Below, in pieces: positions 2,110 through 63,332 of a DNA stretch of 64,000 nt. The DNA comes from Sinonovacula constricta. Its lineage: Eukaryota; Mollusca; Bivalvia; Cardiida; Solecurtidae. The position numbers and the translations under genes are program-made. Location: NCBI GenBank assembly GCA_007844125.1, contig CM017565.1, positions 14,992,730-15,056,729 on the forward strand, in the 5' to 3' direction. The notes beneath the pieces are model-generated. The model had not been told where the DNA came from, searched no databases, and worked only from the letters and a program-made list of their open reading frames with translations. The first letter of the stretch is position 1. Each line of letters starts with the position of its first letter.

Positions 2110-2334
2110 TATCATTATAGCACAGGGGCACTTATGAGGTGTCCAGGGACTGAATACGGCCGGTCCATTATACTGACACCGACGAGTCAGGCGTAATGCT
2201 GTCCCCTTAGCACAAGCGATAGGAGGGAAGCCAGTTCTACCAACTTTAAAGTCTCTGGTTTGACCCGACCGGGGTTTGAACCCGCGACCTCCCAATCCGC
2301 AAGCCGATGCTCTACCACTTGAGCTATTGCGGCC
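2110..2334 (-). mobile_element. tRNA-derived SINE (family 1)
   Basis: On the minus strand the head begins GGCCGCAATAGCTCAAGTGG. It has a pol III A box (TAGCTCAAGTGG) and a B box (GGGTTCAAACCCC), as in a tRNA, followed by a conserved non-tRNA body ending CCTGTGCTATAATGATA. The same body recurs at 29981-30257 and 53551-53734. The copy stops earlier than those two and is followed by TTCTG repeats (2095-2109) in place of the AAATGTCGCTG tail. It is therefore either 3'-truncated or a subfamily with another tail. No target duplication was found. Confidence 0.85.
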
Positions 2335-3704
2335 AGTCGACGAATTAAGAAGGAGAGGCAAATACCATGCAAAAATACAAAAAACAACAACAAACAAACA
2401 AAAAACAGCAACAACAACATAGGAATAAAATCTCACTACAACAAGTATGAAGGATAATAATTCAAAATCAATCGAATAAAATTTATCCAGCAAAGTCGGT
2501 GTTAAAATGGCTTTTGTACACAAAATGAACCTATTTTTTCTGCATGTTGTCAAATTAATAGATGGCAGAAAAAATATTAACGCGAACATCAATAATGATT
2601 TTCTTTTTTCCTGTCAATTCTAAAAGTAACGTTTAACGAAAGAGCTTATGAAAGCTGAAAAGTGCAGCGCAAAGGAAAGAAAAGATAAAAGAATATGAAA
2701 AACAGTCTGGACATAATTTTGCATGTATTGTGTGATGGAAGTACGTCTTACTCGTGATGATGGTCACAATGATCCATCACCTGTTACAACATTTTTCTAA
2801 GCAGTTTCCACCTCTACATATAATGTGATTTGCAGTTTGGCACTGCTGCTTTAGGACTCGGCTTGGCGCCATCTGGAGGGTTTCGATCTTTTCAGCATAA
2901 TTCTCTCCTCCTTACACCTACGGCTGTTATCGGTTTAAGTGATCGGTCACTACCCCTAAGGTAAAGAAAAGTATTAAATCTTTTCTATAGATTTTTAATT
3001 AAAATCAAATTAAGCGTGTACAGCAATGGAATTACCCATGAGCGCCTGCTTGTATCTTTTTTAAATAGACTTCCGGGTCTTTGCCGTTAAAATCCAAAAT
3101 GTTGTAAGCGATATGCCACACATTGCTTCAACTAAGGAAAAGAAACGATTATAATTTCTAACAAAATACTCATTCAATGCCAATTTTTAGTCGTTATCCT
3201 TAGAACCATGTGTTTTGCTGTTAACAAACGCGTTCGAAATTCCTTTTCAAGGAACTTAAAACATCACTGTTTAACAGCGATATCTCAACGCCTTCAAAGA
3301 ATGAGACCGTTTTTATATGAAGCTAATTGGAAAATAGGATCTGAAACTTCCCGCCTTCGATTGATCACACAGCAATTATAAAACTACCTATTGATCAGTG
3401 ATTATACGATGTTGCCCAAAGATTTAATACTCGGATGTCAGTCCTCATTCATTTTTCTTTACCAAGAACGGATGTTTAGCCAAAGCTCGTAGACCTCACC
3501 ACCGCGGCATAACGTTCGAAACGTTTCATTAGCTCAATTTAACATGTGAAAAAGTTTTTTTTCTGTACTCTTGTAAATAGCCAATGTAAAAGATGTTTTA
3601 AATCCGTAGCCTCGAACCATATGGTTAGGATCGTTTTTCAGACTTAATTCATTTCTCAGCTTTTTATTACTGTGTCTCACCGATTTGAGCTGGGTATAAT
3701 TATA
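2335..3704. other. Intergenic, nothing recognised
   Basis: AT-rich sequence with CAA-rich stretches near 2385-2420. No coherent exon, RNA gene or internal repeat was recognised on either strand. Confidence 0.4.
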
Positions 3705-9630: not shown

Positions 9631-9640
9631 CTATTTATGA
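9631..9640 (+). repeat. Target-site duplication, left of foldback element
   Basis: CTATTTATGA here is repeated exactly at 15931-15940. Because the inverted repeat begins with A at 9640, the true duplication is probably the nine bases CTATTTATG, the tenth identity being fortuitous. Confidence 0.85.
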
Positions 9641-12100
9641 GGTTTGTGAAGTTGGCTGGGAATTGGGAATTGGGTATTGGGTATTCAATATCCAGATACA
9701 ACCGAATACCCAGCCAGCTAGGAATTGGGTATTCGCGAATTCCTAGATACAACCGAATACCCAGCTAGCTAGGTATTGGGTATTGAATATAGAGCTGCAG
9801 TCGTATTCCGAGCTGGCTAGGAATTGGGTATTCGAAATATCAATGCAGAGTTTGAATATCGTGCTAGACCTGAATACCGAGCTGGCTGGGAATTGGGTAT
9901 TCGAAATACATTCTGTAAAGAAACTATTCAAAGCAGATTTGAATATCGAGCTAGACATGAATACCCAGCTGGCTGGGAATTGGGTATTCAAAATATTTTT
10001 ATTATTTGAACAATTCAACGCAGAGTTTGAATATCGAGCTAGACCTGAATACCGAGCTGGCTGGGAATTGGGTATTCGAAATATTTTCTGTAAAAATACT
10101 ATTAAACGCAGAGTTTGAATATCGACCTAGAGCCGAATACCTATCTGGCTGGGAATTGGGTATTCAAAATATTTTTTTTTAATAGAAACATTTTAAGCAG
10201 AGTTTGAATATCGAGCTAGACCTGAATACCTATCTGGCTGGGAATTGGGTATTCGAAATTTTTTTCTTATAGAAACAATTAAACGCAGATTCTGAATATC
10301 GAGCTAGACCTGAATACCGAGCTGGCTGGGAATTGGGTATTCGAAATATTTTCTGTAAAAATACTTTTAAACGCAGAGTTTGAATATCGAGCTAGAGCCG
10401 AATACCTATCTGGCTGGGAATTGGGTATTCGAAAAAAAATTTTTAATAGAAACTTTTTAAGCAGAGTTTGAATATCGACCTAGAGCCGAATACCTATCTG
10501 GCTGGGAATTGGGTATTCAGAGTTTGAATATCGAGCTAGACCTGAATACCTATCTGGCTGGGAATTGGGTATTCGAAAAAAAATTCTTATAGAAACAATT
10601 AAACGCAGATTCTGAATATCGAGCTAGACCTGAATACCGAGCTGGCTGGGAATTGGGTATTCGAAATATTTTCTGTAAAAATAATTTTAAACGCAGAGTT
10701 TGAATATCGAGCTAGAGCCGAATACCTATCTGGCTGGGAATTGGGTATTCGAAAAAAATTTTTTAATAGAAACTTTTTAAGCAGAGTTTGAATATCGACC
10801 TAGAGCCGAATACCTATCTGGCTGGGAATTGGGTATTCAGAGTTTGAATATCGAGCTAGACCTGAATACCTATCTGGCTGGGAATTGGGTATTCGAAAAA
10901 AAATTCTTATAGAAACAATTAAACGCAGATTCTGAATATCGAGCTAGACCTGAATACCGAGCTGGCTGGGAATTGGGTATTCGAAATATTTTCTGTAAAA
11001 ATAATTTTAAACGCAGAGTTTGAATATCGAGCTAGAGCCGAATACCTATCTGGCTGGGAATTGGGTATTCGAAAAAAATTTTTTAATAGAAACTTTTTAA
11101 GCAGAGTTTGAATATCGACCTAGAGCCGAATACCTATCTGGCTGGGAATTAGGTATTCAGAGTTTGAATATCGAGCTAGACCTGAATACCTATCTGGCTG
11201 GGAATTGGGTATTCGAAAAAAATTTCTTATAGAAACAATTAAACGCAGATTCTGAATATCGAGCTAGACCTGAATACCGAGCTGGCTGGGAATTGGGTAT
11301 TCGAAATATTTTCTGTAAAAATAATTTTTAAACGCAGAGTTTGAATATCGAGCTAGAGCCGAATACCTATCTGGCTGGGAATTAGGTATTCGAAAAAGAA
11401 ATTTTAATAGAAACTTTTTAAGCAGAGTTTGAATATCGACCTAGAGCCGAATACCTATCTGGCTGGGAATTAGGTATTCGAAAAAAATTTTTAATAGAAA
11501 CTTTTTAAGCAGAGTTTGAATATCGACCTAGAGCCGAATACCTATCTGGCTGGGAATTGGGTATTCAAAATACTTTTTTATAGAAACTTTTTAAGCATAG
11601 TTTGAATATCGAGCTACACATGAATACCTATCTGGCTGGGAATTGGGTATTCGATTTTTTTTTCTTATAGAAACAATTTAACGCAGATTCTGAATATCGA
11701 GCTAGACCTGAATACCGAGCTGGCTGGGAATTGGGTATTCGAAATATTTTCTGTAAAAATACTTTTAAGCGCAGAGTTTGAATATCGAGCTAGAGCCGAA
11801 TACCTATCTGGCTGGGAATTGGGTATTCGAAATACTTTTTTTAATAGAAACTTTTAAAGCAGAATTTGAATATCGAGCTAGACCTGAATACCTATCTGGC
11901 TGGGAATTGGGTATTCGAAAAAAATTTCTTATAGAAACAATTAAACGCAGATTCTGAATATCGAGCTAGACCTGAATACCGAGCTGGCTGGGAATTGGGT
12001 ATTCGAAATACTTTCTGTAAAAATACTTTTAAACGCAGAGTTTGAATATCGAGCTAGAGCCGAATACCTATCTGGCTGGGAATTGGGTATTCGAAATATT
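9640..12100 (+). repeat. Left arm: tandem ~88-bp monomers
   Basis: Each monomer carries GAATATCGAGCTAGACCTG, a GAATACC..GGTATTC inverted pair enclosing GGCTGGGAATTGG, and an A/T-rich linker ending CGCAGAGTTT. Anchors (start of GAATTGGG) fall at 9890, 9977, 10065, 10153, 10242, 10330, 10418, 10506, 10562 and so on: steps of 87-89 bp plus one short step of 56 bp where a 32-bp linker is missing. The outermost units are irregular and unlike the interior. Confidence 0.95.
10242..11290 (+). repeat. 320-bp higher-order repeat in left arm
   Basis: Equivalent anchors recur exactly every 320 bp (10242, 10562, 10882, 11202 and 10330, 10650, 10970, 11290). Each unit comprises four monomers with steps 88+88+88+56. 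The units are almost identical in sequence, showing recent amplification of a multi-monomer block and not of single monomers. Confidence 0.92.
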
Positions 12101-12470
12101 TGCATATGCTACATACGGACAAATACATTGCCATGCCATTGCGGGCATAAAAAAATGTTGACTTATCGTCATATTGTTTTATTATCCGTAAGAAATTGTT
12201 GCCGACGGAGTCCGAATGATTTTTGCCGGCGATTAATTTAAGCATTTTAGGTGGGTATTTTGATCGGCATGCAGAATAATGCAGACTCTATTTCCGACGG
12301 AAATAGAATGTTATAGACGGTGCAGCCGTTAGAGATCTCAATAAATATGCCGACGGAATGTTAATTTTGCAGACGAAGACTTAAATGTGTTTTACCAACA
12401 GTGGATTGAATAATGTTGCCGACGGAAACCGGAAATGTATTGCCGACGGATAATGTAAAATTAAAATTTT
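12101..12470. other. Unique centre of the foldback element
   Basis: This 370-bp loop lacks the arm repeats. It holds four copies of GCCGACGGA (12201, 12349, 12418, 12442) and one CCGACGGA (12293), all on the same strand. No transposase motif and no convincing ORF is present. The repeated GC-rich nonamer stands out against an AT-rich background and could be a protein-binding array, which is inference. Confidence 0.7.
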
Positions 12471-15400
12471 TTTTTCGAATACCCAATTCCCAGCCAGATA
12501 GGTATTCGGCTCTAGCTCGATATTCAAACTCTGCGTTTAAAAGTATTTTTACAGAAAATATTTCGAATACCCAATTCCCAGCCAGCTCGGTATTCAGGTC
12601 TAGCTCGATATTCAGAATCTGCGTTTAATTGTTTCTATAAGAATTTTTTTTCGAATACCCAATTCCCAGCCAGATAGGTATTCAGGTCTAGCTCGATATT
12701 CAAACTCTGAATACCTAATTCCCAGCCAGATAGGTATTCGGCTCTAGGTCGATATTCAAACTCTGCTTAAAAAGTTTCTATTAAATTTTTTTTTCGAATA
12801 CCCAATTCCCAGCCAGATAGGTATTCGGCTCTAGCTCGATATTCAAACTCTGCGTTTAAAAGTATTTTTACAGAAAATATTTCGAATACCCAATTCCCAG
12901 CCAGTTCGGTATTCAGGTCTAGCTCGATATTCAGAATCTGCGTTTAATTGTTTCTATAAAAAGTTTTTTTCGAATACCCAATTCCCAGCCAGATAGGTAT
13001 TCAGGTCTAGCTCGATATTCAAACTCTGCTTTAAAAGTTTCTATTAAAAAATATTTTGAATACCCAATTCCCAGCCAGATAGGTATTCGGCTCTAGGTCG
13101 ATATTCAAACTCTGCTTAAAAAGTTTCTATTAAATTTTTTTTTTCGAATACCTAATTCCCAGCCAGATAGGTATTCGGCTCTAGCTCGATATTCAAACTC
13201 TGCGTTTAAAAGTATTTTTACAGAAAATATTTCGAATACCCAATTCCCAGCCAGCTCGGTATTCAGGTCTAGCTCGATATTCAGAATCTGCGTTTAATTG
13301 TTTCTATAAGAAATTTTTTTCGAATACCCAATTCCCAGCCAGATAGGTATTCAGGTCTAGCTCGATATTTAAACTCTGCTTAAAAAGTTTCTATTAAAAA
13401 AGTATTTTGAATACCCAATTCCCAGCCAGATAGGTATTCGGCTCTAGGTCGATATTCAAACTCTGCTTAAAAAGTTTCTATTAAAAATTTTTTTTTCGAA
13501 TACCCAATTCCCAGCCAGATAGGTATTCGGCTCTAGCTCGATATTCAAACTCTGCGTTTAAAAGTATTTTTACAGAAAATATTTCGAATACCCAATTCCC
13601 AGCCAGCTCGGTATTCAGGTCTAGCTCGATATTCAGAATCTGCGTTTAATTGTTTCTATAAGAATTTTTTTTCGAATACCCAATTCCCAGCCAGATAGGT
13701 ATTCGGCTCTAGGTCGATATTCAAACTCTGCTTAAAAAGTTTCTATTAAAATTTTTTTTTCGAATACCCAATTCCCAGCCAGATAGGTATTCGGCTCTAG
13801 CTCGATATTCAAACTCTGCGTTTAAAAGTATTTTTACAGAAAATATTTCGAATACCCAATTCCCAGCCAGCTCGGTATTCAGGTCTAGCTCGATATTCAG
13901 AATCTGCGTTTAATTGTTTCTATAAGAAATTTTTTTCGAATACCCAATTCCCAGCCAGATAGGTATTCAGGTCTAGCTCGATATTCAAACTCTGCTTAAA
14001 AAGTTTCTATTAAAAAAAAATATTTTGAATACCCAACTCCCAGCCAGATAGGTATTCGGCTCTAGGTCGATATTCAAACTCTGCTTAAAAAGTTTCTATT
14101 AAATTTTTTTTTTCGAATACCCAATTCCCAGCCAGATAGGTATTCGGCTCTAGCTCGATATTCAAACTCTGCGTTTAAAAGTATTTTACAGAAAATATTT
14201 CGAATACCCAATTCCCAGCCAGCTCGGTATTCAGGTCTAGCTCGATATTCAGAATCTGCGTTTAATTGTTTCTATAAGAATTTTTTTTCGAATACCCAAT
14301 TCCCAGCCAGATAGGTATTCAGGTCTAGCTCGATATTCAAACTCTGAATACCTAATTCCCAGCCAGATAGGTATTCGGCTCTAGGTCGATATTCAAACTC
14401 TGCTTAAAAAGTTTCTATTAAAAAAATTTTTTCGAATACCCAATTCCCAGCCAGATAGGTATTCGGCTCTAGCTCGATATTCAAACTCTGCGTTTAAAAT
14501 TATTTTTACAGAAAATATTTCGAATACCCAATTCCCAGCCAGCTCGGTATTCAGGTCTAGCTCGATAGTCAGAATCTGCGTTTAATTGTTTCTATAAGAA
14601 TTTTTTTTCGAATACCCAATTCCCAGCCAGATAGGTATTCAGGTCTAGCTCGATATTCAAACTCTGCTTAAAAAGTTTCTATTAAAAAAGTATTTTGAAT
14701 ACCCAATTCCCAGCCAGATAGGTATTCGGCTCTAGGTCGATATTCAAACTCTGCTTAAAAAGTTTCTATTAAAAATTTTTTTTTCGAATACCCAATTCCC
14801 AGCCAGATAGGTATTCGGCTCTAGCTCGATATTCAAACTCTGCGTTTAAAAGTATTTTTTTCAGAAACTATTTCGAATACCCAATTCCCAGCCAGCTCGG
14901 TATTCAGGTCTAGCTCGATAGTCAGAATCTGCGTTTAATTGTTTCTATAAGAATTTTTTTTCGAATACCCAATTCCCAGCCAGATAGGTATTCAGGTCTA
15001 GCTCGATATTCAAACTCTGCTTAAAAAGTTTCTATTAAAAAAAAATATTTTGAATACCCAATTCCCAGCCAGATAGGTATTCGGCTCTAGGTCGATATTC
15101 AAATTCTGCGTTTAATAGTATTTTTACAGAAAATATTTCGAATACCCAATTCCCAGCCAGCTCGGTATTCAGGTCTAGCTCGATATTCAAACTCTGCGTT
15201 GAATTGTTCAAAAAATAAAAATATTTCGAATACCCAATTCCCAGCCAGCTCGGTATTCAGGTCTAGCTCGATATTCAGAATCTGCGTTTAATTGTTTCTA
15301 TAAGAATTTTTTTTCGAATACCCAATTCCCAGCCAGATAGGTATTCAGGTCTAGCTCGATATTCAAACTCTGCTTAAAAAATTTCTATTAAAAAAAAATA

Positions 15401-15930
15401 TTTTGAATACCCAATTCCCAGCCAGATAGGTATTCGGCTCTAGGTCGATATTCAAATTCTGCGTTTAATAGTATTTTTACAGAAAATATTTCGAATACCC
15501 AATTCCCAGCCAGCTCGGTATTCAGGTCTAGCTCGATATTCAAACTCTGCGTTGAATTGTTCAAAAAATAAAAATATTTTGAATACCCAATTCCCAGCCA
15601 GCTGGGTATTCATGTCTAGCTCGATATTCAAATCTGCTTTGAATAGTTTCTTTACAGAATGTATTTCGAATACCAAATTCCCAGCCAGATAGGTATTCAG
15701 GTCTAGCACGATATTCAAACTCTGCATTGATATTTCGAATACCCAATTCCTAGCCAGCTCGGAATACGACTGCAGCTCTATATTCAATACCCAATACCTA
15801 GCTAGCTGGGTATTCGGTTGTATCTAGGAATTCGCGAATACCCAATTCCTAGCTGGCTGGGTATTCGGTTGTTTCTGGATATTGAATACCCAATACCCAA
15901 TTCCCAATTCCCAGCCAACTTCACAAACCT
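12470..15930 (-). repeat. Right arm: inverted tandem monomers
   Basis: Reverse complement of the left-arm monomers. Anchors at the GCTCGG-type monomer (12565, 12884, 13234, 13586, 13850, 14202, 14522, 14875, 15140) are spaced 319, 350, 352, 264, 352, 320, 353 and 265 bp. These equal three or four 88-bp monomers, with or without one 32-bp linker deletion. The arm is about 1 kb longer than the left one. Confidence 0.95.
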
Positions 15931-15940
15931 CTATTTATGA
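15931..15940 (+). repeat. Target-site duplication, right of foldback element
   Basis: CTATTTATGA, identical to 9631-9640 and in the same orientation, directly abuts the element end CACAAACCT. Confidence 0.85.
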
Positions 15941-20796: not shown

Positions 20797-21452
20797 ATTC
20801 TATACATAGCGTGTGACGTCACTACGTTAAAGTCACCTCTATACTACGACTCGTAACTCACCAAAAATTTGAGATTTGTGCCTACATAAAAAATAGTTCC
20901 GCATAGGAAATACGTTCGATTATAATATTCATTAAATTAAGAAAAATGACTAAACAACCATATTCTAAGGCCTTATTCTATGTCCAGAAACTTTTTAAGT
21001 CTTGATATTTATAGATAAATGGAAAAAAATACGATGAGCAAGTTTTGCTACTTTCGCTTTCGTTAAACAGTAATATGTCAACAAGACAAAATGGATGATA
21101 AACTGCGTTGCGTCAACACACCGTTGCGTCAACACACGGTCAAAATGTAGTGACGTCACACGCTATGTATAGAATGGTGTGCACGTCGATCTACACCGAA
21201 TTTAATTGACAATATTACCAAAGTTCTGGACCGTTTACAAAATTTAGTTCAAAATGTTTGCATGAAACATATTTTAACTATTAGAATGTATAAAAAAATG
21301 CCAAAATAATCTTTTGTATACCTCTTCGTACTTGTTTTGTTCATTTTAGCAATCACTTCCATATTCATAACAGCCATGTTGAAGAACTACTTTACCCACA
21401 ATACACCGAGGGCATTCACACAGGTCATTTTGACCGTGTGTTGACGCAACGG
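20797..21452. mobile_element. Two interleaved inverted-repeat (MITE-like) elements
   Basis: A perfect 30-bp inverted pair (starting CATTCTATACATAGCGTGTG) lies at 20797-20826 and 21147-21176. A second perfect 27-bp inverted pair (starting CCGTTGCGTCAACACACGG) lies at 21121-21147 and 21426-21452. The right arm of the first begins on the last base of the left arm of the second, so the elements interleave. The tip GCGTTGCGTCAACACAC is also tandemly repeated just before 21121. A related but rearranged copy is at 31566-32106. No ORF of note. Confidence 0.8.
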
Positions 21453-22699: not shown

Positions 22700-23780
22700 T
22701 AAATAATCAGTTAATATGATGTATAAACTTCGAGTCAGTTTTTAATGGGAAGAGATTAGTAAATTTTAATGAATAATGAGGATTTGATTTAAAAAACGCA
22801 TAATGACAACCTAAGTTATTCATGTTGAAATACCGACTTCGCCCCAATATTATGTGGAACGCAGCGTGAATTAATAAATAGACGCACATTTAGTAGAGAT
22901 TAAAATGAATTAGACGGATTTCCTCGACGGCAGATTAAAATCGTACGTGTCTGTCAGGTCATGATGTTTACATTATGAACTATTAATTTGTTAAGAAAAA
23001 GTGAATAGATGTGATTTATGATGTCGCCATATAACAAAACAAACTGTACACCCTTTTACAATGGCTATTAATATATCATTCGTCAACACTAAAAGTTCCC
23101 GTCCACAAATCAATTTATTTTCACCGCTTTCTTTTGAATCGGTCATCTGGACGGGCTAATCACAGAAACTACAACGACTGTTAAACAAGACTAATGTAAA
23201 ATATTGTGTCGGTAACGCTTAAGGACAATCTTTCCTCAAAGGATGTCATTATTATCTGAAAAACTGAACAAGAACCAAAAAGAAAAGAAATCAAACGGTC
23301 GTATTAGGGTTAACGACTAATGAGTAAGCGATGTGTCTTCTATTGACGACAGTGACATTGTAGGATAAAGGCATTCGGGTAATGAAGGTCTGTCGTCAGA
23401 TTCCGTTTTCCGGCCATTTTTCTTATAGAGTGACTAAACCTGTTGATAAACATACTGTCAACTCATTTGAAGAGGTTGTTCAATTAGAGTCGGGTTTAAA
23501 CATGTAAATAGGACAAGATTAAAGACGACCACAAAATGAATTAATATCTTGCTCATAGCTTGTAATTTTCAGTCGATGTGAGAAACAGTTATTTGTAATG
23601 CTATGCACACAATTTGAGCAGATGAACAACCGCGAGGTTCCGCGTGTTTGTCCACTTCCATTTTGTTGAAAGATTTACCTTTGTTGAAAGATTTAACGGT
23701 ACATTTTGTATTCATGTTTTAATCAGGACCTTCTAACTTGTATCAAACCTTGTTTTATTTTTGTTAATTTAAACGCAATG
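22700..23780. other. Low-repeat intergenic block
   Basis: No repeat family seen elsewhere in the window and no exon is recognised. It has moderate complexity with scattered TAAT and CTAATG cores (for example around 23150-23500). It is a candidate for conservation testing, nothing more. Confidence 0.3.
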
Positions 23781-23789
23781 ACAAACATT

Positions 23790-24158
23790 TATGACTAGTA
23801 ACCCCTGCATAATTCCGCAAGTTGGTCTTTTCATTTGTTTTACTTTGTTGTTATGCTTGTGCTCTTTGGTGAGTATGTTGACTTTTCTGCCTTTCTTGTG
23901 ATACCCAGGTTAACCATCGTCAACAAACACTTCCATTATCTTTTTAAAGTAACAAATCTCTCTAAGTATTAAAATGGATGTTAAGCTTATATTTATGCAA
24001 AAGTAAGAAATGTCACTGTTGATTATTGCACCATCTACAAAGGAACAGGCGACAAAGTCCAAGAATTCCAACTAAATGGACCTACCTACTGTTTGGAATA
24101 CCTCGGATATTAACTAACAAGGGAGACAATTTCCATTTCATCAATGTTTCTCATTATT
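23790..24158 (-). repeat. Dispersed repeat R5 (~370 bp), copy 1
   Basis: Reverse complement of the copies at 51754-52130 and 59920-60293. Shared blocks include CAAGGGAGACAATTTCCATT, GGCGACAAAGTCCAAGAATT, TATTTATGCAAAAGTAA and GTGATACCCAGGTTAACCAT. The family ends are imperfect inverted repeats around ATTGTCTCCC, suggesting a short DNA transposon. Confidence 0.75.
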
Positions 24159-26899: not shown

Positions 26900-29510
26900 G
26901 ACCTAAATATAAATAGTGGGTAAGAACTTCGATGTCCAGACATAAACACAATCGGAACACCTCGGATAATTCACGAATCTTCTCTCGGATGTATATAGGT
27001 ATTTGGATCGGCCATTTCCATAAATAGTACTCCTTTTGTGACATACGTCAAAACAAAGATGGCAGCTCGTATGACAGCTCACTACAGTATGAAGCCTGTA
27101 AAACTTCAATTTGTGGCGGCTTCAAACTTAAATCTTCTAAGTTTAATTAACGTAGCGCAACAGACACGCAGCTGTCAAACGACACCATTGTTAATGTTTT
27201 GTGCGAACTGCATTTTAGGCATATTCTTCTCCCGATTTCTCGCGAACAAAACGATCGTGATTTCAGTAAGTATCATTGCACCAGATACATCCGAGGGATG
27301 AGTGTCCCGATGACGGTATTACCCGAGGAGTTCCGATTGACATAAACATATATTTTCCTAGTTACAAATATACAAATATATTTACACATATGACAAGTGC
27401 ATAACTTTACACTTTATGCAATTGACAAAAATAAATAAATAATAATAATAAAATAAAAAAATTAATAATACTGGATAAAGTGTGAGGTCGAAGAAATCCA
27501 ACTGTACTGTGAGCAGAAAGGGAAATAAAGTGCATTAATGTGCTTGCGAAGTTTTCATTGTATTCTTTTTTTTCCACTTCTTATCACTAAGACAAAACCG
27601 CGAGATATACCACGTGTAACATTACTCGCGTAAAAATTCTTACCTGCAAGAAAGATCACGGATGTGCGATATTAATTAATTTCAGGACGAATATTTACAA
27701 AACAGATATTTCGATGTTCATTGTTATTGTTTTCTAAAAATTGTTTGTCGTTGCTTTCTAATGTGCCTTTCATTGTTGTCGGCAACATTAATATTATGGA
27801 AATTGCAAGCTGGACACTTGCGCTCGGCATGCATTTTCTTGGGAAAAAACAACAACAACAACAAACAAACAACAACCCACTCTAACCAAGACTTTGTCAA
27901 GCTGCAAAGAATTTTGGTTATTGTCTGCTAGCGTGTTTTATTGTCTGCTATACTGATATGTTTCGTAATTGCAACTAGCACTAAAAACAATAAAATACAT
28001 GAGTGGTTTGACAGAAAACACTTGCCAAGAAATTGTCAAACCATTGAGAATTCCTGTTGTTGTCTGCTACATCATTTTCTCCTCACACAGGGCTGTTTCG
28101 TTGTTATTAAGACATCTCTGGTCATGTTTGTTCATGATTCAAAAAGTTAATTTTATTTATAGTCAACCATTTTTGTGTAGTTTTTCAAATCGAAATAATA
28201 CCATATTCTTTTCTCAACACTATGTGGACATTATTTTTCAATGGCGTCACTACTTTCGTCATAACTTATAGAAAATATCAGCGCTTGGACATTTTGTATT
28301 CATAAAGATCGTGATTTCTTTTTTCATTGCTTGAATTTGAGAAACTCGTCAGGAAGTGCGAGGTTAGAGCTCCGTAAACCCGGTTTAAGCAACGCAGTCG
28401 GTCCATATTGCCGGCTGACCGTTCCAAGGCGGTAACTGTCGGGTTTGCTCTTTTCGTTAAATGACTCATCGCATATTTGTTCTTACTTTTCGCTTGGCTT
28501 GCATGTGAAATACCTTTGTTCTGTGCCTTTTCGGAGTTTGGTATATGTTGCAATGCTCATAGGACTTTGTCATATATTCTTATACTGATATGTATGCACG
28601 TCGCTTTAAAATGTTGCTATAACCTGGTCATTTTCGGAAAAAAAGCTTTTAAACTGACACGATTTGTTTAATGTGGAAACGTTTGGTTTATTAGATTAAA
28701 CGAAAAAAAACAACAAAACACATTCAAAGTATGCAGTCACGTTTACTGTTAACAACAACAAAAAAGAACTGCGTCTCTTTCCTAAATTAGATAGATTTAT
28801 TTATTACCAACAAAGCTTTAAGAGTCATTAAATTTGTCAGATTAACGTCACAAAATGCAGCTCACTCACATTTTAAGCTGTTAATACCTGATATCTCTCG
28901 ATGAAGTAGCGAAAACACAATGGGGAGATTGGGTTTTAAAACCGCCAAAACTGTAATCGATGTCTTGGCGGACAGGGGCCTATAATTACACGTGACATGA
29001 GAAGAGAGAAAATCTGGGACTAGCTACAGTTCTGTTTAAGTCCAGGTAGTAAACCATGTCATTAGCGCTCTCGAAATAGTGGACAAATAAACGATACCGT
29101 CCGACAATCCGTAACCCGAGCCAAAACATATGTTCAGCATTTTGAATGAGTAATTACGGGTGAAAATATGTTTCAACCAAGGTGTCAAGCCGGAGCATTA
29201 TTTAAAACAATTATATACCCGTGTGAAAACGGCGGTGACACAAATGTTTTCTGTTCGTTACACAATGATCAACGTAGCGTATGAATCTGTTGATGATACT
29301 GGTCGTTACAAGATGGGGGAAACTGTCCATTTAGCGCTTAGTGTCGGTATTTTGCGTCATGGCATGCCCAATGTTGCCGACAATTGACAAAATCAATTAA
29401 TGACACCTGATTGTTACTCACCAAAGATAACCGCTACTTTCGTTATAAATGTTCACCTAAGCGAAGAATTTTTGTAATCAATTCAAAATATAAAACCGTA
29501 TTTTTTAGGT
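26900..29510. other. Intergenic, no recognised gene
   Basis: Several short frames exist, for example 27059-27301 from an AAGATGGCAGC start and 29160-29387. None matches a family I know or continues across a credible splice. A CAA-rich patch lies at 27850-27875. Segment 28370-28460 (GTTCCAAGGCGG) looks like an old repeat but has no partner in the window. Confidence 0.3.
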
Positions 29511-29980: not shown

Positions 29981-30257
29981 ACAGGCCGCAATAGCTCAGG
30001 TGGCAGAGCGTCGGTTTGCGGATCGGGAGGTCGTGGGTTCAAACCCGGCCGAGATCAAACCAAAGGCTTTAAAGTTGGTAGTAGTGGCTTCCCTCCTGAT
30101 GCTCGGGGATAAGGGGACAGCATTACGCCTGACTCAGCGGTGTTAGTGTAAAGGACCGGCCGGGTTCAGTCCCTGAGCACCTCATAAGTGCCCCTGTGCT
30201 ACAATGATAGAAATGTCGCTGCACAGTATCGGCAAAAATGCCGGCTAATCCCATCCC
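29981..30257 (+). mobile_element. Full-length tRNA-derived SINE (family 1) with TSD
   Basis: The 12-bp sequence CCATAATTATGA lies at 29969-29980 and again at 30256-30267, a perfect target-site duplication. The head has A box TAGCTCAGGTGG (29992-30003) and B box GGTTCAAACC (30036-30045), consistent with internal pol III promotion. A body follows (GGCTTCCCTCCTGATGCTCG, CATAAGTGCCCCTGTGCTA) with the tail GCCGGCTAATCCCATCCC. The 119-codon frame over it is the translated SINE and not a gene. It is the best reference copy for the family in this window. Confidence 0.92.
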
Positions 30258-31099
30258 ATAATTATGATGGAAGAGGGCGATATTTTTACAATAACCCAAC
30301 AACACACTAGCTGTAATCCAAATGAATATTCCCACACTGTCGTTATTTTATTTTATAACACTTGTTGTATTCAGGGTTGGTCTTTTTAGTCTTGAATGTT
30401 TAAACAGGTCTTATTTAAGATAAAACAAGTGTAGTAGAAAATATATAGAATTTGAAAATAAACACAACAAATGACTTGTATACTTTAATGTAGACGTGTA
30501 TGCCAAGTTTTAAGAAAATTCTCGATCCAGTTTTGTATTTATGGATATTTCTGTTTTCTAAAATTGATATTAAATGTGTCTTCCTTTTAGAAATAAGCAA
30601 ACTCCAAATATTATGTTATATCCTCTTTAGGTGAGGAGAAGTGTTTTGTTATTGAGTATCAGTTGGAAACAAGATATAGCATTAGGCAAACCAACCAAAC
30701 ATGTTACTTGATTAGTTTGACTCAAGCTATCCTAAATATGTAATAAATTGCTTACAAACCCACTCCATTTAAGACTTGTTTTCCCGATTTTATTTTACTT
30801 GTTGCACTTTATTGCAAAAATCGCCGAGCTCGTGATAGCCACATGCTTTATTTCAGAGTTGCCCCAAAATGTTCTATAAGTATTTTGGTTGATGCTGAAA
30901 AATAAAAAATAATTTCACCATATGGTTTTTACTTTTTAGACTTTGAATATATCAGGTAACGAATTTGTCATCAAATTTATCACAAATCATACAATTAAAA
31001 TTCATTTACAAAAGTAAAATTAAAAGAATACACGTTTCCTGGTGATTAAAGTGATGCAGAAATTACTATAAAAGTGAAAAAGTTGAAAGAAAAAAAAGT

Positions 31100-31266: not shown

Positions 31267-33007
31267 TTAAAGGTGGTAGTCGGCAGTTTGAACAAAAACA
31301 TTTTTCTCAAATAACCAAATAACTCATTGTGACCTGAAAAGGTCCTGCAAAATGCTGTTTATTGATGTCCTGATTTGTGTGAACATTCAAGCATTTATGC
31401 ACACTCGTCATTGCAAACAGTTACTTCCGGTCTGAACCACCTTGCAGAGATAGCTATTTTTCAACTAAGAAAACCACGTGACAACTTACTTTTGAGATCA
31501 CCTTATATCGTCATCCGGGTAGTCCGCTCTGACGTCGATAGCTATTTTTAGTAGAGACCTATGTCGTACTTATTTATAGTCACTACGTTAGTCATCTCTA
31601 TACTACGACTCGTAACTCACCCAAAATTTGAGATTTGTGCCTACATAAAAAATAGTTCCGCGTAGGAAATACGTTCGATTATAATATTCATTGAATTAAG
31701 ATAAATGACTAAACAACCATATTCTAAGGCCTTATTCTATGCTCAGAAACTTTTAAAGTTTTGATATTTATAGATAAATGGGAAAAAAAAAACGATGAGC
31801 AAGTTTTGCCACTTTCGCTTTCGTTAAACAGTAACATGTCTATTCTATACATAGCGTGTGACGTCACTACGTTAAAGTCTGTACCGTTTACAAAATTTAG
31901 TTCAAAATGTTTGCATGAAACATATTTTAACTATTAGAATGTATAAAAAAATGCCCAAATAATCTGTTGTATACCACTTCGTACTTGTTTTGTTCATTTT
32001 AGCAATCACTTCCGTATTCATAACAGCCATGTTGAAAAACTACTTTACCCACAATACACCGAGTGCATTCACACAGGTCATTTAGACTGTGTGTTGACGC
32101 AACGAACACCAGACAGACCATAGTCTATCAATGAGTGACGTAGCAATGACGTAGGGGGTGTCCTAAAATGCGACCGACACAAGGTCACACACGATGCGTG
32201 GCTCTTGCATAACAGGACCCATTTGTATAACGCAACACATATCACGTACCCGCTTCTCGTTCGCTAGTTCAAAGTTAGTCCCCAGAATGTAACTAGTAAT
32301 TTGTGTGATTTATCTGTCTGCAAAAGAGATGGGTTTGGATACACGAAGAGGCGTTCCATCGTAACTTAAAAAAATAAGTTTCACATTGTTAGTTAAAAAT
32401 GTTAGGTCTGCATAATACTGGCCTTAAGCTTTCGTATATAAATATTTAATATTTATTTAAACTAGTGTATGTATTGATTGCACTTATTTTAATAGTTTCG
32501 GGTTTAAAAAGAAAAAAATGCACAAAAGATAGATGCACATCACCGGCATATACATGTAACAACAATTGAACCCTTGGATACATTTGGAGTATTTGTACAT
32601 GAAAGGTAAGAAATCCATACTTTAATCTAAGCAGTTTAAAGCTTCCTCTATTTTAAAACAGTACCTCTGTTCAATACATCGCTTTTAAGTTTAAATGTGT
32701 ATTCTTTTCTAATTTATAAATTAACACCTGTGGGATTTCTGCTAAAAATAGACATAGACGAGAAAGCAGATTAATCAGATGATATAACATGGTCAGATTA
32801 TTTTATTAGTTTTTAAATAGCTAACTGTGCAGGGTGGCTCACACAAGAAATAAATGTTCGTAACAAAGATTATGCTTTACTTTTTACACAGATGGAGAAC
32901 AACATTCAATAAACAACATTTAGCGGGGATCCGTTCAGGTAACAATTCTTAATTTTGTTGTTTTAGGAAACGTGTTTTGATCCAAACTGCCTGATACCGC
33001 CTCTAAT
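31267..33007 (+). mobile_element. MITE family M1 split by later insertions
   Basis: The left part (31267-31565) starts TTAAAGGTGGTAGTCGGCAG and follows the 4427 copy closely through TCATCCGGGTAGTCCGCTCT and TTTTTAGTAGAGACC. The matching right end, CCAAACTGCCTGATACCGCC, appears only at 32983-33002. The gap is filled partly by the rearranged inverted-repeat element at 31566-32106. The join between the halves is inferred from family consensus. Confidence 0.6.
31566..32106. mobile_element. Rearranged copy of the 20797-21452 element
   Basis: Shares long stretches with 20797-21452 (for example CTATACTACGACTCGTAACT and CCATATTCTAAGGCCTTATT), ending GTGTGTTGACGCAACG. In the middle (31840-31880) the CTATACATAGCGTGTGACGT block points the opposite way from the same block in the first copy. 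The ~90 bp with the doubled GTTGCGTCAACACAC tip is absent. Confidence 0.75.
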
Positions 33008-43009: not shown

Positions 43010-44794
43010 GTGTGTATTTTTTTTTGCATTTTTAAATTTTATTTGCACTTATTTTCAAACGACGTCAATTTCTGCACATCTGCTGTGGTTGCTTCAATAA
43101 TTTATCAATGCATACCGTTTTTAATCGTATATAGTTGAGCTTGCTCCTTTGCAACAAGTTTATGACTATTAACAACCTGGGGTACATTGTTGCTGTCGCT
43201 GAAGTTCAAAGCAAACTGTCACCACTGTACACGGGCTTGGTTTAATGGTTGAATTGTCTATATATTCATGATATATTTCAGAAGATTGTTTTTCTTTTTC
43301 ATATAAAACAGCAAACGCACACATTGTGAATACGCTAATGTTTTTGAAGTAGCAATGATTTGGTTGGTATTAAAAACAACATCAACAACAACAACAACAA
43401 TAACAACCGTGTGAGTCTTTCCGGGGACATTCCAATGCCAGTATTATAACTGTCATATTGTAATAAAAATATTTGCCCAGATTGTACATCGTGTGTGGGT
43501 TGTATTATGGTTTCTAATTTTTTTTTTAAATCGCATTAGGAGTAAAAGTGGAGTAAAATAGCAAAAGGATGGCTTTATCCTAAGAATATAAAAAAGGAGT
43601 CCAAGATGTATAAAGACAAGATTATTATTACCCATAAACTCCATCCCTATTCTAAAATACGTTTATTATGGGGCTGGTTAATGACTGTGGTTACAATTTA
43701 AATACACTGGGTACTTGTCACAATGGGAAATTGTAGACCTATGTAGAAATGCCTACTAAGAGGTACAATTATCTATCGAATTTCATGACATCCCATAGCT
43801 GTGGTGAGAAATGGGGGTCCATACCATTGTATATGAAGATAGTTCACGTATTTGCCTTGCGGTTTATGGAACGATTGCGAGATTTTATTTTAACCTGTAA
43901 CGCTCATAATTATGCGAGACATAGAGAATTTGCATATTTTACCGCAAACGGGGCTATGTTATAATACAAATATAATATCTTTTTTGGTTTAACAGTCTGT
44001 GGATATTCGCAGAATGTTAAGAATTACGGATATGTCTATTGCTAAGTATGTGTATAATGCTGTAATACGATGTTATGATTGCTTATGTTGAGTCTCTTTC
44101 ATGTAGGTTATGTTTTAATTTATATTGATAGATGGATACGCTGTGAGGCCAGTTGTTGTTCGTCGCAAATTGCTTAATAGCCATTATTATATCATTAAGA
44201 ATATCATTTATAATACCGGATATATTTCTTACTAAAAATTAATGTTAATTAAAATCATATCATCATAACGCCATAAGAATAAGAATATTAATGCACATAG
44301 TTAATTATTAATAGTCAATGATATTTAAAATGAAATTTCTTGTGCCATTTACGACAATAAACCATTTTCAAGAGCAATACAATTATTTGTTATAAATTTA
44401 TTATTTATATGATTTATATTTTTTTCTCTTTTCAGAGCATGAAGGCACCTCTGCACTACCGACCACCTGTTTCTATGGGTTCGAACCCCTGTTGCTCCAC
44501 TGGTCGACCTGTCCTTAGCGACCCGATTAGCGGCCGAGTCGTCTGCTCATGCCAGCTTCAGACCGGTCTACCAGCCTACTTGTCTAGGGTCCCAAGTCTA
44601 CCAGAAACCGTTTACGGTTCAAACACCAACATGGGATTGTCTCAGACGTCACCAACAGAGCAACAAGCACACTATTTACACATGGTGAGAAATTATATTT
44701 ATATATCTAGTTCTTTCCATAATATGGTGTAACCACTGTATTATCTTAACGGTAAAGAAGATAAAGTTGTTGGTTATGGTGGTGGTGGTGATGC

Positions 44795-44848
<54 letters not shown>

Positions 44849-46192
44849 GTAATAGTAATAATTAGAATAATATATTGACTTTTTTCAGTATCAGGACCGT
44901 ACCACAGACAGTCTGAAAGCAGCGCCCCCAAGCAGTCAGTACCCGTACTACATGTCCGAACAGATGATGGCAGCACACCCATATGGTGCTTTGTAAGTAA
45001 AATTGACTATTGTTTTGGACAAAACGCATTTTTTCACTAATTTCTCTTCTCAAACATTCATAATAAGTTGTCTTTTGGTATAATTCTCTTAAAAACACCA
45101 AAAACTATTGTTTGAACAACAGCATAAAAATAGAGCATTCTTTTAAAATTATTTACTTAAATTCATCATTAATGTTTTAATGCAATGCAAAGGACGCCTT
45201 CTTAAATTCTGTCAACTTTTTTCAAAAAGATTATCGAATTTCACAGAAATCACGTTTCTTGATTGTAAATTGTATTTGTCTCATTTATTCTATCAGCTAC
45301 CCAGGATTTGACATAAACGGTGCACGTCGTAAGAACGCCACGCGCGAGACAACCAGTGCTCTGAAGGCATGGTTGCACCAACATTTGAAGAATCCCTACC
45401 CGACAAAGGCAGAGAAGATCATGTTGGCGGTGATCACACAGATGTCGCTGACACAGGTGTCCACGTGGTTTGCCAATGCCAGAAGAAGGTTAAAGAAGGA
45501 GAACAAACTAAACGGTGGCAGTCCAGTGGATCTCAACGATCTGGACATGGATGGTGAGTTAGACAAAGATATTTCCGATAAGTCAGATCAACTGAACGTT
45601 GGTGATGTAATGGCATGGGTCTTTTTTAAGTTATAAGTAGAAAAAAAATAATATAACGATAAGAATAAGTAAGATAATGAGTCGTAATTTATTTTACTTT
45701 TAATAGTTATTTATTTGATTTAAATTTCTATAACATCGCCATTTTCTTATTTTTCCAGACGTCTCAACACACAATGACAGCCTTTCCAGTCGAATTTCTG
45801 AGAGTGATTCTGACAGTGTAGCAAACCTCACGAAGAGCTCCGCCGAACTTTCCGATGTATCTGACGCGGAGGAACAGACAACAAACATCAAACCCGCCAA
45901 GAAATGCGTGCAGCGCCTCTTTTCCCCAGACGGCAGAAATGAACTATTTTTAGAACGCATCCCATCACCCGGCTGTGACAAGGTCACTGTGCACAAAGAC
46001 AATGGCAGTGTGTTTTCTTCAAACTGCGCAATCTTTTCACCAGCTGCGTCATCCAGTGAGCAGAAGTCTGAACTCCTACAAACAAGTTCTCAAGATATTG
46101 ACGTAGTAACCGTGACGCCATCTGCAAAATCTCAAATAGCCCCTGTACAGTCAAAGCCAAAGATTTGGTCAATAGTCGATATCATGTCATGA
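42986..46192 (+). CDS. Iroquois-class (Irx) TALE homeobox gene, five exons
   Basis: Nuclear DNA-binding transcription factor of the Iroquois family, which patterns nervous system and body regions in animals. Joining 42986-43009, 44436-44684, 44889-44992, 45297-45553 and 45759-46192 gives an uninterrupted 355-aa frame with GT-AG introns. Residues 27-48 carry the invertebrate Iroquois Cys-rich motif (CC..GRP..DP.SG..VCSCQ). The TALE homeodomain is about residues 135-197. It has the three-residue loop PYP (159-161) and the recognition helix WFANARRR (183-190), with Ala at homeodomain position 50 as in Irx. Ser/Asp/Glu-rich sequence (212-245) follows. The protein ends in [12 protein letters not shown] (344-355), like the KPK[IL]WS motif of Irx proteins. 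Oddities: the homeodomain has LHQHL, TKAEK and ITQMS where Irx usually has NEHR/QEHR-, TKGEK and ITKMT, and the MTW after the homeodomain is missing. I read it as a diverged Irx paralogue. The start is the first in-frame ATG (A at -3); Met6 is an alternative. Confidence 0.92.
43010..44435. other. Irx intron 1
   Basis: 1,426-bp AT-rich intron from GTGTGT to a pyrimidine-rich TTTTTTTCTCTTTTCAG. It has a CAA-rich patch at 43377-43410. No conserved element is recognised. Confidence 0.8.
44436..44684 (+). CDS. Irx exon 2
   Basis: 83 codons (residues 9-91), phase 0 at both ends, donor ATG|GTGAGA. Encodes the Cys-rich Iroquois N-terminal motif [15 protein letters not shown] and VVCSCQ. Confidence 0.9.
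44797..44856. repeat. (AAT)n microsatellite in Irx intron 2
   Basis: About 17 TAA units plus TAG variants lie only ~35 bp before the exon 3 acceptor in a 204-bp intron. Length changes could affect the branch point to acceptor distance. Confidence 0.95.
44889..44992 (+). CDS. Irx exon 3
   Basis: Residues 92-125 and two bases of codon 126. Acceptor TTTTTTCAG, donor GCTTT|GTAAGT. Encodes [20 protein letters not shown] and on to HPYGA(F), the Tyr/Pro-rich stretch that precedes the homeodomain in Irx proteins. Confidence 0.9.
45297..45553 (+). CDS. Irx exon 4 (homeodomain)
   Basis: Completes codon 126 and encodes residues 127-211, then one base of codon 212. Donor GATG|GTGAGT. Starts [17 protein letters not shown], matching the Irx signature (D[LI][11 protein letters not shown]), so the intron sits just before the homeodomain as in other Irx genes. 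The whole TALE homeodomain is in this exon. Confidence 0.97.
45759..46192 (+). CDS. Irx exon 5 (C-terminal)
   Basis: Acceptor TTTTTCCAG. Residues 212-355 and TGA. Begins with a Ser/Asp-rich acidic stretch and ends with [13 protein letters not shown]. Shorter than the C-terminal regions of most Irx proteins. Confidence 0.93.
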
Positions 46193-50700: not shown

Positions 50701-51753
50701 ATTTACAGACCTTGCTGTTGAATTTTCTAGCAAAATGTCCAGAAATCTCTGTGTGAATTGGAGGAAAATGATTTGGAATAAATATGGTTTGTTTACAAAC
50801 TGTTGCATGGTAAGGGCTTAAAATACATTCCGCTTGTCTTTATTTAAATACCCACAACGTCGAGCAGACCTGTAAATGACTACAAATGGGTGCACAGATT
50901 TAAAGTGTTCCCGGCCTATAAACATATGCAAATCACGTCTAATTATTTATGTACCACCAATCTCTTCAAATAAACCTTTATAAAGATATTAATTAACGTT
51001 TTACTCCGTTTTAAATATGCCCGTTATCAAAGAAAAATAATGGTACCCGGAGGAGGAAAGCACCGCGCTACGTTGTCAAAGAAGAACCGGTGCCTTGGCT
51101 CGAAAAGTACCGTGCAAACATAGCGTCATCAACACATCAAACAAGCATGCCATTACAGACATAATAAACATTTCTTTTATTCCCAATACTTTGCGCATAT
51201 ATTATCCATTGATAGTTTCCATCGCCAGAAGTGTTACAATTAAACCTAATACATTTCATTTAAATACGGTAGTGAATCATACTTATTTCCTGACGTAAAT
51301 AGGCCTTGATAGAACGTGGATGTATTGTTTATGAGACAAATTCTGAAACAGAAATGATGTGCAATGATAAAAAATCCAACGTTTTTTGTCTCTAGGTGTA
51401 TTTACGCGCGTTTATGTACTTTTCAAAGTGTTTTTTACAGTACTCTAAGTGTTGGTTCTTGTAAACAACACGTCATTGCAGAACCGGAAATTAACATTTA
51501 TTTCTTGATTTGCTGAGCACGAATTGATCAAGTTTCGGCAAATAAATTAGACCAAGATTAGCACGCTGCGGAGCTGGGAGCTGTCTGAATAGGATCCGCA
51601 CTATTTAGCTGTTTAATATTTACACTTGTATGTATCGATTGCGACATAAGCTTACAGATGTACGTAGATAACTAGTTTTGGTAATGTTTCGAGGCTTGTT
51701 ACATCGCATAGACACAATCATGGTTAGATTTGCGACGCCCAGCCAATAGGTTA

Positions 51754-53550: not shown

Positions 53551-53734
53551 AAAGTTTGAAAATGGCTTCCCTCCTAACGCTCGGGGCTAAGAGGACAGCA
53601 TTACGACTGACTCGTCGGTGTCAGTATAATGGACCGGCCGGGTTCAGTCCCTGGGCACTTCATAAGTGCCCCTGTGCTATAATGATAGAAATGTCGCTGC
53701 GCAGTATCGGCAAAAATGCCGGCTAATCCCATCC
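53551..53734 (+). mobile_element. SINE family 1, 5'-truncated
   Basis: Lacks the tRNA head; begins AAAGTTTGAAAATGGCTTCC and continues with the full body and tail (GGTGTCAGTATAATGGACC, CATAAGTGCCCCTGTGCTAT, GCCGGCTAATCCCATCCC) as at 29981-30257. Confidence 0.88.
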
Positions 53735-54116
53735 CTTTTCTTTTTTTCTGGCGAGACAAGTGATAAAACGTACATATAGCGTTCTTAAAAGAAAACGGAG
53801 ATCTACAAGTTTAGAATCAAAATTTGAATACTTTGGCAGATATGGACCGGAAAGAAAAACAGAAAACTGACATCTTACCTCGATTTTTTGGGTCCGTTTT
53901 GCTGTGGATTGTGGGGTTTTATGGGGAAAACCTTTTAGTTGAAGAAGTCAGTTTGGCTACCCAAGTTGACAGTTGAGGCGGGTTTTCGACACCCCAAGTC
54001 GTGAAGAGTTCTAAATAGGTGTCGCCAAAGTGTTGAGAGTTACAAATTTTGTTTCAAAATGTCTGAAGGACTTAATGTAAAGGTAATGTTAGGATGCAAA
54101 TGTGTGGGTTATACTT

Positions 54117-59915: not shown

Positions 59916-59919
59916 AGTA

Positions 59920-62985: not shown

Positions 62986-63332
62986 ACATTAACTCGTAAA
63001 GATACACATTTTACAATCAGTATACATAATTCCAAAAGAGACATATATTCAATAAGATGCCTATGCGATTTTTTTAATATTCTGTATTATGAGTAAATGT
63101 ATCTGGGACACTAAGCCATGGAAAAAAAACAGCAAATACGTACGTGTATGTGAAAGAAATGTACGATATGCGTGGAATGGTTATTTGTTTCCATTAGAAT
63201 GACCCATTTCTTTATGACAACTTTATACCTTCATAGTGTCGACAACCATCCGTCAACTGGTATATTTTTTACTTCTATAAATGGCTTTATTATATTTACG
63301 ATTGCATTATAAAGTGTTCACAGACACCCTCA

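What the first reader, a model, noticed from the sequence alone, without database searches (positions are those of the whole stretch)
9631..15940. Intact foldback transposon with 2.5- and 3.5-kb tandem-repeat arms
Seen: exact inverted ends, mirror-image arrays of ~88-bp monomers, a short unique centre, and CTATTTATG(A) directly duplicated at both borders. Known: Drosophila FB elements combine long inverted repeats built of tandem subrepeats with 9-bp duplications, and Mutator-like elements duplicate about 9 bp. Inference: this is a non-autonomous foldback element, possibly an undescribed family, mobilised by a transposase encoded elsewhere.
Basis: partly seen in the sequence, partly recalled or inferred. 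Interest (0 to 1): 0.88.

Follow-up and report, generated by a model that had tools for sequence, protein, structure and literature searches.

The report
Long-armed foldback transposon in a bivalve
This is a real mobile DNA element from a clam-like animal: two mirror-image arms built of dozens of repeats around a small core, one copy of a family of many with nearly identical ends; no protein gene was seen in it, so it probably moves by borrowing another element's enzyme.

Summary
The element is window 9640-15930 (6,291 bp): inverted ends (205 of 206 bp identical), arms of 2.46 and 3.46 kb made of ~88-bp monomers, CTATTTATG on both sides. In the host genome (a bivalve by homeobox homology) the exact 21-bp tip occurs 68+68 times, control 0. 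Of 32 end pairs examined, 28 have an exact 9- or 10-bp target-site duplication, 3 match at 8 of 9, 1 has none. Repeat copies in the window show uninterrupted empty sites for two other insertions. So this is a non-autonomous foldback transposon, not an assembly artefact. Two corrections. It is not intact: 12 of 13 other whole copies have a 2.7-3.3 kb centre, this one keeps 366 bp. Its transposase is unidentified: no long frame in the 17 copies scanned; Mutator-like is inferred from duplication length. A near-invariant dyad, GAATACC-N17-GGTATTC, in almost every monomer is a candidate transposase site. Arms reach 7.26 kb, longer than arms of complete foldback elements in the sources seen. New member of a known kind.

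The parts
9631..9639 (+). left target-site duplication CTATTTATG
   Evidence: 9-bp length confirmed by other copies
9640..9845 (+). left outer domain: tip AGGTTTGTGAAG, first exact dyad at +65, degenerate ~48-bp repeats related to the monomers, strong hairpin potential of 9640-9780 (DNA fold z = -5.0)
9845..12096 (+). left array of ~88-bp monomers in a higher-order order of four types (A-B-C-D, assigned by eye), with three 56-bp short units
12097..12462 (+). retained 366 bp of the centre (2.7-3.3 kb in 12 other whole copies), no long frame, with GCCGACGGA repeats
12460..12462 (.). internal-deletion junction, 3-bp overlap ATT between centre and array
12463..15725 (-). right array of ~88-bp monomers (mirror image), with two 56-bp short units
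15725..15930 (-). right outer domain, 205 of 206 bp identical to the left one
15931..15939 (+). right target-site duplication CTATTTATG
30164..30260 (+). copy of a SINE-like repeat serving as a paralogous empty site for another insertion of the family (C4:52868183, duplication TCGCTGCAC)
   Evidence: 91.8% identity across the junction, target present once and unchanged
53642..53735 (+). second copy of that repeat, same empty site, target once with one base different
   Evidence: 91.6% identity
28521..28583 (-). repeat copy serving as a paralogous empty site for the insertion at C8:49286008 (duplication CAGTCCTAT), target once with one base different
   Evidence: 85.7% identity over 63 bp

Best explanation
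Window 9640-15930 is an internally deleted copy of a young, non-autonomous foldback DNA transposon family in a bivalve. Shown: inverted ends, mostly 9-bp target duplications at many different sites, paralogous empty sites, near-identical copies, no long open frame in the copies scanned. Inferred: a transposase encoded by another element binds the ends, cuts the element out and inserts it at a new site with a 9-bp stagger. A Mutator-like enzyme is the likeliest (about 0.75), from the duplication length and most foldback precedents. Inferred: the near-invariant dyad GAATACC-N17-GGTATTC (26-92 exact copies per element in 13 copies, 35 or more in 12 of them) is the transposase-binding site, multiplied by unequal exchange and by exchange within and between arms. 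Inferred: this copy lost ~2.75 kb of centre by end joining (3-bp overlap at the junction), as internal-deletion derivatives of cut-and-paste elements commonly do (recalled).
For: Ends: exact 21-mer tip 68 forward + 68 reverse, reversed-pattern control 0/0; with up to 2 mismatches 119+127, control 0/2. Duplications: 13 of 13 copies exact 9 bp. Of 19 further pairs, 13 exact 9 bp, 2 exact 10 bp, 3 at 8 of 9, 1 none. Three sites occur twice, leaving 26 of 29 distinct sites with an exact duplication of 9 or 10 bp. Empty sites: 3 of 30 joined flanks compared with the sequences held found an uninterrupted paralogue: C4:52868183 (two window copies of a SINE-like repeat, ~92%), C8:49286008 (window 28521-28583), C2:80531867 (a relative of the element's own centre). 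Youth: centres of 12 copies have median pairwise identity 98.7%, range 97.5-99.9%; tips are identical in the 40 places scored at full length, but these were the best 40 of 316 candidates, so that figure is selected. No gene: longest stop-free frame in 13 centres 128 aa. Dyads: spacer 17 in 778 of 788 over 13 copies; among 369 distinct monomers the dyad core is the most conserved of 88 31-column windows, 0.971 against 0.844 for the rest. Arm dynamics: the two copies at one C8 site have one arm equal (3,449 bp) and the other 967 or 3,255 bp. Deletion.
Against: No transposase-encoding copy was found. None of the listed PF10551 (MULE) matches on contigs C1-C12 lies within 69 kb of the 100 listed ends; the test is partial, since 150 of 302 candidates were scored and 100 of 136 exact ends listed. 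The tip begins AGG, while most arthropod MULE tips have G/C in the first three bases (PMC13359780, passage). Dyad conservation may partly reflect homogenisation, slippage in the A/T-rich linkers, and the seed used to cut monomers, which covers the left part of the dyad. One pair (C12:8233235) has no duplication, and 36 of the 100 listed ends have no exact-tip partner within 23 kb. All copies examined were picked by near-perfect tips, so old copies are under-represented. A Pfam match at its cut-off in the centre (CDC24_OB2) is judged spurious but not disproved.
Confidence: 0.85

Rival explanations
1. The foldback element is moved by a transposase of another superfamily, such as P (as for Galileo) or hAT.
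For: Galileo has the same kind of arms but a P-superfamily transposase (PMC3573991, PMC3688188, passages). No transposase was found here, so sequence does not exclude it.
Against: Galileo makes 7-bp duplications. Here they are 9 bp in 26 of 32 pairs and 10 bp in 2. P and hAT elements are known for 8 bp (recalled).
Confidence: 0.15
2. An inverted satellite array or segmental palindrome without mobility.
For: The arms alone look like satellite DNA with higher-order repeats, and three insertion sites occur twice on one chromosome.
Against: Exact duplications at 26 of 29 distinct sites, paralogous empty sites, and balanced numbers of forward and reverse tips (68/68) and cores (1,718/1,715).
Confidence: 0.01
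3. Assembly artefact (mirror image of one tandem array, or an unsplit hairpin read).
For: Long inverted repeats are prone to mis-assembly; arm lengths in particular could be wrong.
Against: Flanks differ on the two sides, arms are unequal, a shared centre lies between them, and the same build recurs at many loci with exact duplications.
Confidence: 0.01
4. The dyad arrays serve in some way other than transposase binding, for example as sources of double-stranded RNA, or have no function and grow by slippage and unequal exchange.
For: Arrays expand and contract freely (967 or 3,255 bp at one site). Long TIRs of MULEs are linked to small RNAs (PMC6446971, passage).
Against: The 17-bp spacer is kept in 778 of 788 dyads and the second half-site, outside the cutting seed, is 0.99 conserved. 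Binding sites in TIR repeats are shown for Galileo (PMC3688188, passages).
Confidence: 0.4

Closest known systems
Tetris of Drosophila virilis (PMC4079207: abstract, section on characterisation and part 1 of the discussion read)
   Same: Non-autonomous foldback element; outer domain plus arrays of tandem repeats in the TIRs; 8-10 bp duplications; repeat number differs between allelic copies; repeats share a stretch with the outer domain; placed in Mutator by duplication length only.
   Different: Tetris TIRs reach 1,735 bp with ~220-bp repeats; here arms reach 7,257 bp with ~88-bp monomers in a higher-order repeat. Against uniqueness: Tetris repeats also form satellite-like arrays of up to 66 copies, thought to have grown inside Tetris. 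Bivalve, not fly.
Tm1 of root-knot nematodes (PMC3169594: abstract, part 1 of 3 of the results, TIR section, passages)
   Same: Composite TIRs with a variable number of direct repeats, unequal between ends, 9-bp duplications, copies without a transposase gene.
   Different: Repeats ~14 bp, 1-9 per TIR. A Phantom-type MULE transposase copy is known for Tm1; none found here.
Muta1 of Aedes aegypti (PMC5225508: abstract and passages)
   Same: Palindromic terminal motif plus subterminal tandem repeats; 8-9 bp duplications; non-autonomous copies with variable repeat number.
   Different: 12-bp repeats, 145-bp TIR, and an active autonomous copy.
Galileo (P superfamily; PMC3573991 and PMC3688188: passages)
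   Same: Long internally repetitive TIRs, with demonstrated transposase-domain binding sites in the repeats; first site ~70 bp from the tip (here the first exact dyad starts at +65).
   Different: 7-bp duplications, TIRs to ~1.26 kb in the passages seen, different transposase.
Drosophila FB elements (recalled; mentioned in the papers above)
   Same: Long inverted repeats made of tandem subrepeats; 9-bp duplications (recalled).
   Different: No sequence comparison made; different host.

Membership tests
Foldback (FB-like) elements, a structural class | long terminal inverted repeats that make up much or most of the element | tested here: met
Foldback (FB-like) elements, a structural class | direct tandem subrepeats inside the inverted repeats, variable in number | tested here: met
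Foldback (FB-like) elements, a structural class | target-site duplication at dispersed sites | tested here: met
   28 of 32 pairs exact
Mutator-like elements (MULEs) | 8-11 bp target-site duplication | tested here: met
   9 bp in 26 of 32 pairs, 10 bp in 2
Mutator-like elements (MULEs) | long TIRs (typical, not universal) | tested here: met
Mutator-like elements (MULEs) | MULE (DDE) transposase in an autonomous copy with the same ends | tested here: inconclusive
   none found; search incomplete
Mutator-like elements (MULEs) | G/C in the first three bases of the tip (a tendency) | tested here: inconclusive
   tip AGG; criterion from a passage of PMC13359780
P superfamily (Galileo type) | 7-8 bp target-site duplication (7, 8 recalled) | tested here: not met
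   9 bp or more in 28 of 32 pairs
P superfamily (Galileo type) | P-type transposase in a copy with the same ends | not tested
   no P-family search of the genome was run

The most novel reading that the evidence does not exclude
The arms are a selfishly amplified array of transposase-binding dyads: a transposon with no gene that wins the competition for a foreign transposase by carrying dozens of sites per copy (26-92 exact dyads in 13 copies), and in doing so makes and spreads satellite-like higher-order-repeat DNA through the genome.
Probability: 0.35. Interest if true: 0.62.

Novelty: new member of a known kind. Interest (0 to 1): 0.45.

Why it matters
Foldback elements have been known for decades, yet how and why their arms grow is unsettled. 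This family gives many copies with nearly identical ends, arms from under 1 to over 7 kb, a constant dyad, paralogous empty sites and same-site copies that differ in one arm. That makes it possible to test whether arm length affects transposition, and it is a natural case of satellite-like higher-order repeats inside a transposon. The arms here exceed the 1-2 kb maximum quoted for foldback elements in 2007 (PMC1952172, passage), the 1,735 bp of complete Tetris copies, and the 1,193 bp maximum of an arthropod MULE survey (PMC13359780, passage). They do not exceed the satellite-like arrays of up to 66 repeats derived from Tetris.

Tried and rejected
Prokaryote and virus collections: one 18-bp hit in what looks like phage coding sequence (L001), judged chance; no hits for 21-bp words. 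Protein search with an arm reading frame: nothing at E 0.01. Rfam: nothing in the window or in one full copy. Pfam on six frames of one full centre (C10:29256215), stops read as X: CDC24_OB2 at 25.0 bits, its cut-off, E 3.1e-5, with no single stretch significant, in a stop-filled frame that covers a 382-bp tandem duplication; judged spurious but not disproved; two weaker matches (Sushi, MA3) below their cut-offs. tRNA scan of one full copy: none. The 651-aa MULE was considered as partner and rejected: 3.6-kb element, tips unlike these.

The retained centre (12101-12472) and then a piece of the full centre were sent as genome queries and never answered, so whether the centre occurs outside these elements is open. 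A genome-wide query with 28 joined flanks for empty sites did not complete either; 30 joined flanks were instead compared with the 111 sequences already held.

Rows left out of counts: one search left out C12:8233235 (no duplication) and the 1,082-bp copy; one search left out C12:8233235, the 1,082-bp copy and one of each of two same-site pairs; one search left out the three outermost units of each arm and pieces under 50 bp, another the four outermost.
Full report
WHAT IS THERE. The element occupies window 9640-15930. It begins AGGTTTGTGAAGTTGGCTGGG and ends with the reverse complement; 205 of the outer 206 bp and 98% of the outer 714 bp agree between the two ends. CTATTTATG stands directly outside on both sides. 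Inside lie a left array (30 cores, ~2.46 kb), a short centre, and a right array in opposite orientation (41 cores, ~3.46 kb). Most monomers are 86-90 bp, with some of 55-56 bp. By eye they fall into four main types in the order A-B-C-D; clustering gave 5 to 7 groups depending on the threshold, in a recurring order. Tandem Repeats Finder reports periods of 320 bp (left) and 353 bp (right) beside 88 bp, as expected of a four-monomer higher-order repeat with a short form of one unit.

ARMS EVOLVE TOGETHER. Of 65 monomers compared, 15 have their nearest relative strictly in the opposite arm, 28 tie and 22 are nearest within their own arm; nine sequences occur more than once, five of them in both arms, including a 55-bp unit found once in the left and twice in the right arm. 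The outer ~650 bp are collinear; further in, the arms align only with gaps of whole monomers. Exchange between arms plus gain and loss of monomers explains this; descent of both arms from one ancestral arm explains part of it too.

THE HOST. The window holds exons of an Iroquois-class homeobox gene. A protein put together from three frames matches bivalve proteins best among named records (Mercenaria mercenaria 44-46%, then Dreissena and Mya); one unnamed record matches at 85%. The genome has 1.22 Gb in 177 contigs. The species was not identified.

IS IT MOBILE? The first 121 bp of the element hit the genome at 80 places; the 40 full-length ones are 100% identical, but they are the 40 best of 316 candidates, the only ones scored. 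The exact 21-bp tip occurs 68 times on each strand, and its reversed control never; with two mismatches allowed, 119 and 127 times, control 0 and 2. The first 100 of the 136 exact places were listed, giving 32 pairs (64 ends) less than 23 kb apart; 36 ends stay unpaired. Twelve further copies were fetched whole and, with the window copy, 13 of 13 have an exact 9-bp duplication. Of the 19 other pairs 13 have an exact 9-bp duplication, 2 an exact 10-bp one, 3 (including a 1,082-bp copy, read by eye) match at 8 of 9, and C12:8233235 has none. Three sites occur twice on the same chromosome, which leaves 29 distinct sites, 26 with an exact duplication (one of these has a second copy matching at 8 of 9). 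All these copies were chosen by exact tips.

EMPTY SITES. The flanks of 30 pairs were joined with one duplication removed and compared with the 111 sequences held (367 kb); 3 of 30 found an uninterrupted relative of the target. The insertion at C4:52868183 lies in a SINE-like repeat; window copies at 30164-30260 and 53642-53735 run through the site with the target once, at ~92% identity, unchanged in the first and one base different in the second. The insertion at C8:49286008 lies in another repeat with an uninterrupted relative at window 28521-28583 (85.7%, target one base different). The insertion at C2:80531867 lies in a relative (77-82%) of the element's own centre. These are paralogous empty sites, not alleles.

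THIS COPY IS A DELETION DERIVATIVE. In the 12 other copies the centre is 2.7-3.3 kb, with median pairwise identity 98.7%. The window copy matches the first ~370 bp of that centre at 98.6% and then passes directly into array sequence, with a 3-bp overlap (ATT) at the junction. Four more copies were read in part and match 2.4-3.3 kb of the centre. The 1,082-bp copy, also whole, has only a remnant of the centre by eye.

NO GENE SEEN. The longest stop-free frame in the 13 centres is 128 aa. No frame of 150 aa or more lies in three further copies, and none over 106 aa in a fourth, that one in the array. The 1,082-bp copy was not scanned. One copy carries a nested insert with its own frames. Pfam, run on one centre, gave one doubtful match at its cut-off. 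A gene in short exons is not excluded. The first ~900 bp of the full centre hold 12 GCCGACGGA-like motifs on one strand and none on the other, partly because of a 382-bp tandem duplication. In the window's centre 4 exact copies compare with none in 500 shuffles. What they do is unknown.

THE DYAD. GAATACC and GGTATTC, 17 bp apart, occur 67 times in this copy and not elsewhere in the window. Over 13 copies the spacer is 17 in 778 of 788 cases. Among 369 distinct monomers the 31-bp dyad is the most conserved of 88 circular windows (0.971 against 0.844 outside). Both half-sites and the inner CTGGCTGGGAATTG are at 0.99, the A/T-rich linker at 0.80 and the last 22 columns at 0.91. The seed used to cut monomers covers GAATACC to CTGGCTGGGA, so conservation there is favoured by the method; the second half-site is outside the seed. 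The outer domain has one exact dyad at +65 and two imperfect ones, and aligns to the monomer consensus, so the array probably grew from the end, as proposed for Tetris.

ARM LENGTHS. In 26 arms of 13 copies the median is 2.58 kb and 30.5 cores, and the longest is 7,257 bp with 84 cores; two arms (C6:37319978 left, C1:59563512 left) are cut short in this count by the gap rule. The two copies at one C8 site, whose 100-bp flanks are identical, have one arm equal at 3,449 bp and the other 967 or 3,255 bp: gain or loss of ~2.3 kb of array after the site was duplicated, or between haplotypes. Exact cores number 1,718 and 1,715 on the two strands genome-wide, control 0, and 707 of 3,433 lie in these 13 copies. 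The balance of strands speaks against large one-way satellite arrays of this monomer, without excluding them.

HOW IT WORKS. Shown: copies with the same ends sit at many sites between 9-bp (twice 10-bp) duplications, so transposon-type insertion took place, and recently, judging by the 98.7% identity of centres. Inferred: the enzyme comes from another element. A 9-bp duplication and the precedent of Tm1 and Muta1 point to a Mutator-like transposase; Galileo, with 7-bp duplications, shows that the foldback build can arise with another enzyme. 146 MULE-domain matches were listed in the genome, 150 of 302 candidates being scored; on contigs C1-C12, typed by hand into the script, the nearest to one of the 100 listed ends is 69,751 bp away. 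The 20 best MULE loci show no match to the element within 1.5 kb. P and hAT transposases were not searched for. Inferred: the dyads are binding sites.

COMPARISON AND NOVELTY. Foldback membership is met as a structural class. Mutator membership is likely but undecided at its defining feature, the transposase. Seven literature searches showed no foldback family from a bivalve in their listings; they cover open-licence papers only. Bivalve MULEs are known (PMC10294476, passages). The family is therefore probably undescribed, of a known kind, with exceptionally long arms.

Noticed in passing
window 44361-46192: Exons of an Iroquois-class homeobox gene, best named relatives in bivalves.
   Followed up: partly
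window 2110-2337, 29981-30260, 53560-53735: Copies of a dispersed repeat (perhaps a tRNA-derived SINE, by eye), 86-92% alike; one insertion of the foldback family lies in it.
   Followed up: partly
window 23777-24147, 51753-52129, 59918-60293: A ~375-bp dispersed repeat in three copies, 78-84% alike.
   Followed up: no
window 20818-21451 and 31579-32104: Two-part repeat 94-96% identical, ~10.7 kb apart.
   Followed up: no
window 57201-58177: Irregular ~33-bp minisatellite, and an (AGTAT)n run at 63332-63601.
   Followed up: no
L064-L066 (G000 C1:59563412-59586377): A copy of the foldback family whose left arm is interrupted by a ~17-kb insert with the same integrase-like frames in both orientations, resembling a Polinton/Maverick (identification by eye).
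   Followed up: no
G000 C8 3.16/8.78 Mb; C6 0.91/9.34 Mb; C6 31.95/37.32 Mb: The same insertion site found twice on one chromosome, inverted in the first two cases; joined flanks 100%, 87% and 100% identical over 111 bp. Segmental duplication, unmerged haplotypes or repeated target; not resolved.
   Followed up: partly
L013-L018, L020-L022, L067-L069: A 3.6-kb MULE with a 651-aa frame and a PHD-like finger (by eye), nine matches listed with that frame length, 62-bp inverted repeats, possible 8-bp duplication.
   Followed up: partly
L075 (G000 C2:33228523-33229804): A 1,082-bp short and more diverged member of the family with few monomers and a remnant of the centre, perhaps near the ancestral form (by eye).
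   Followed up: partly
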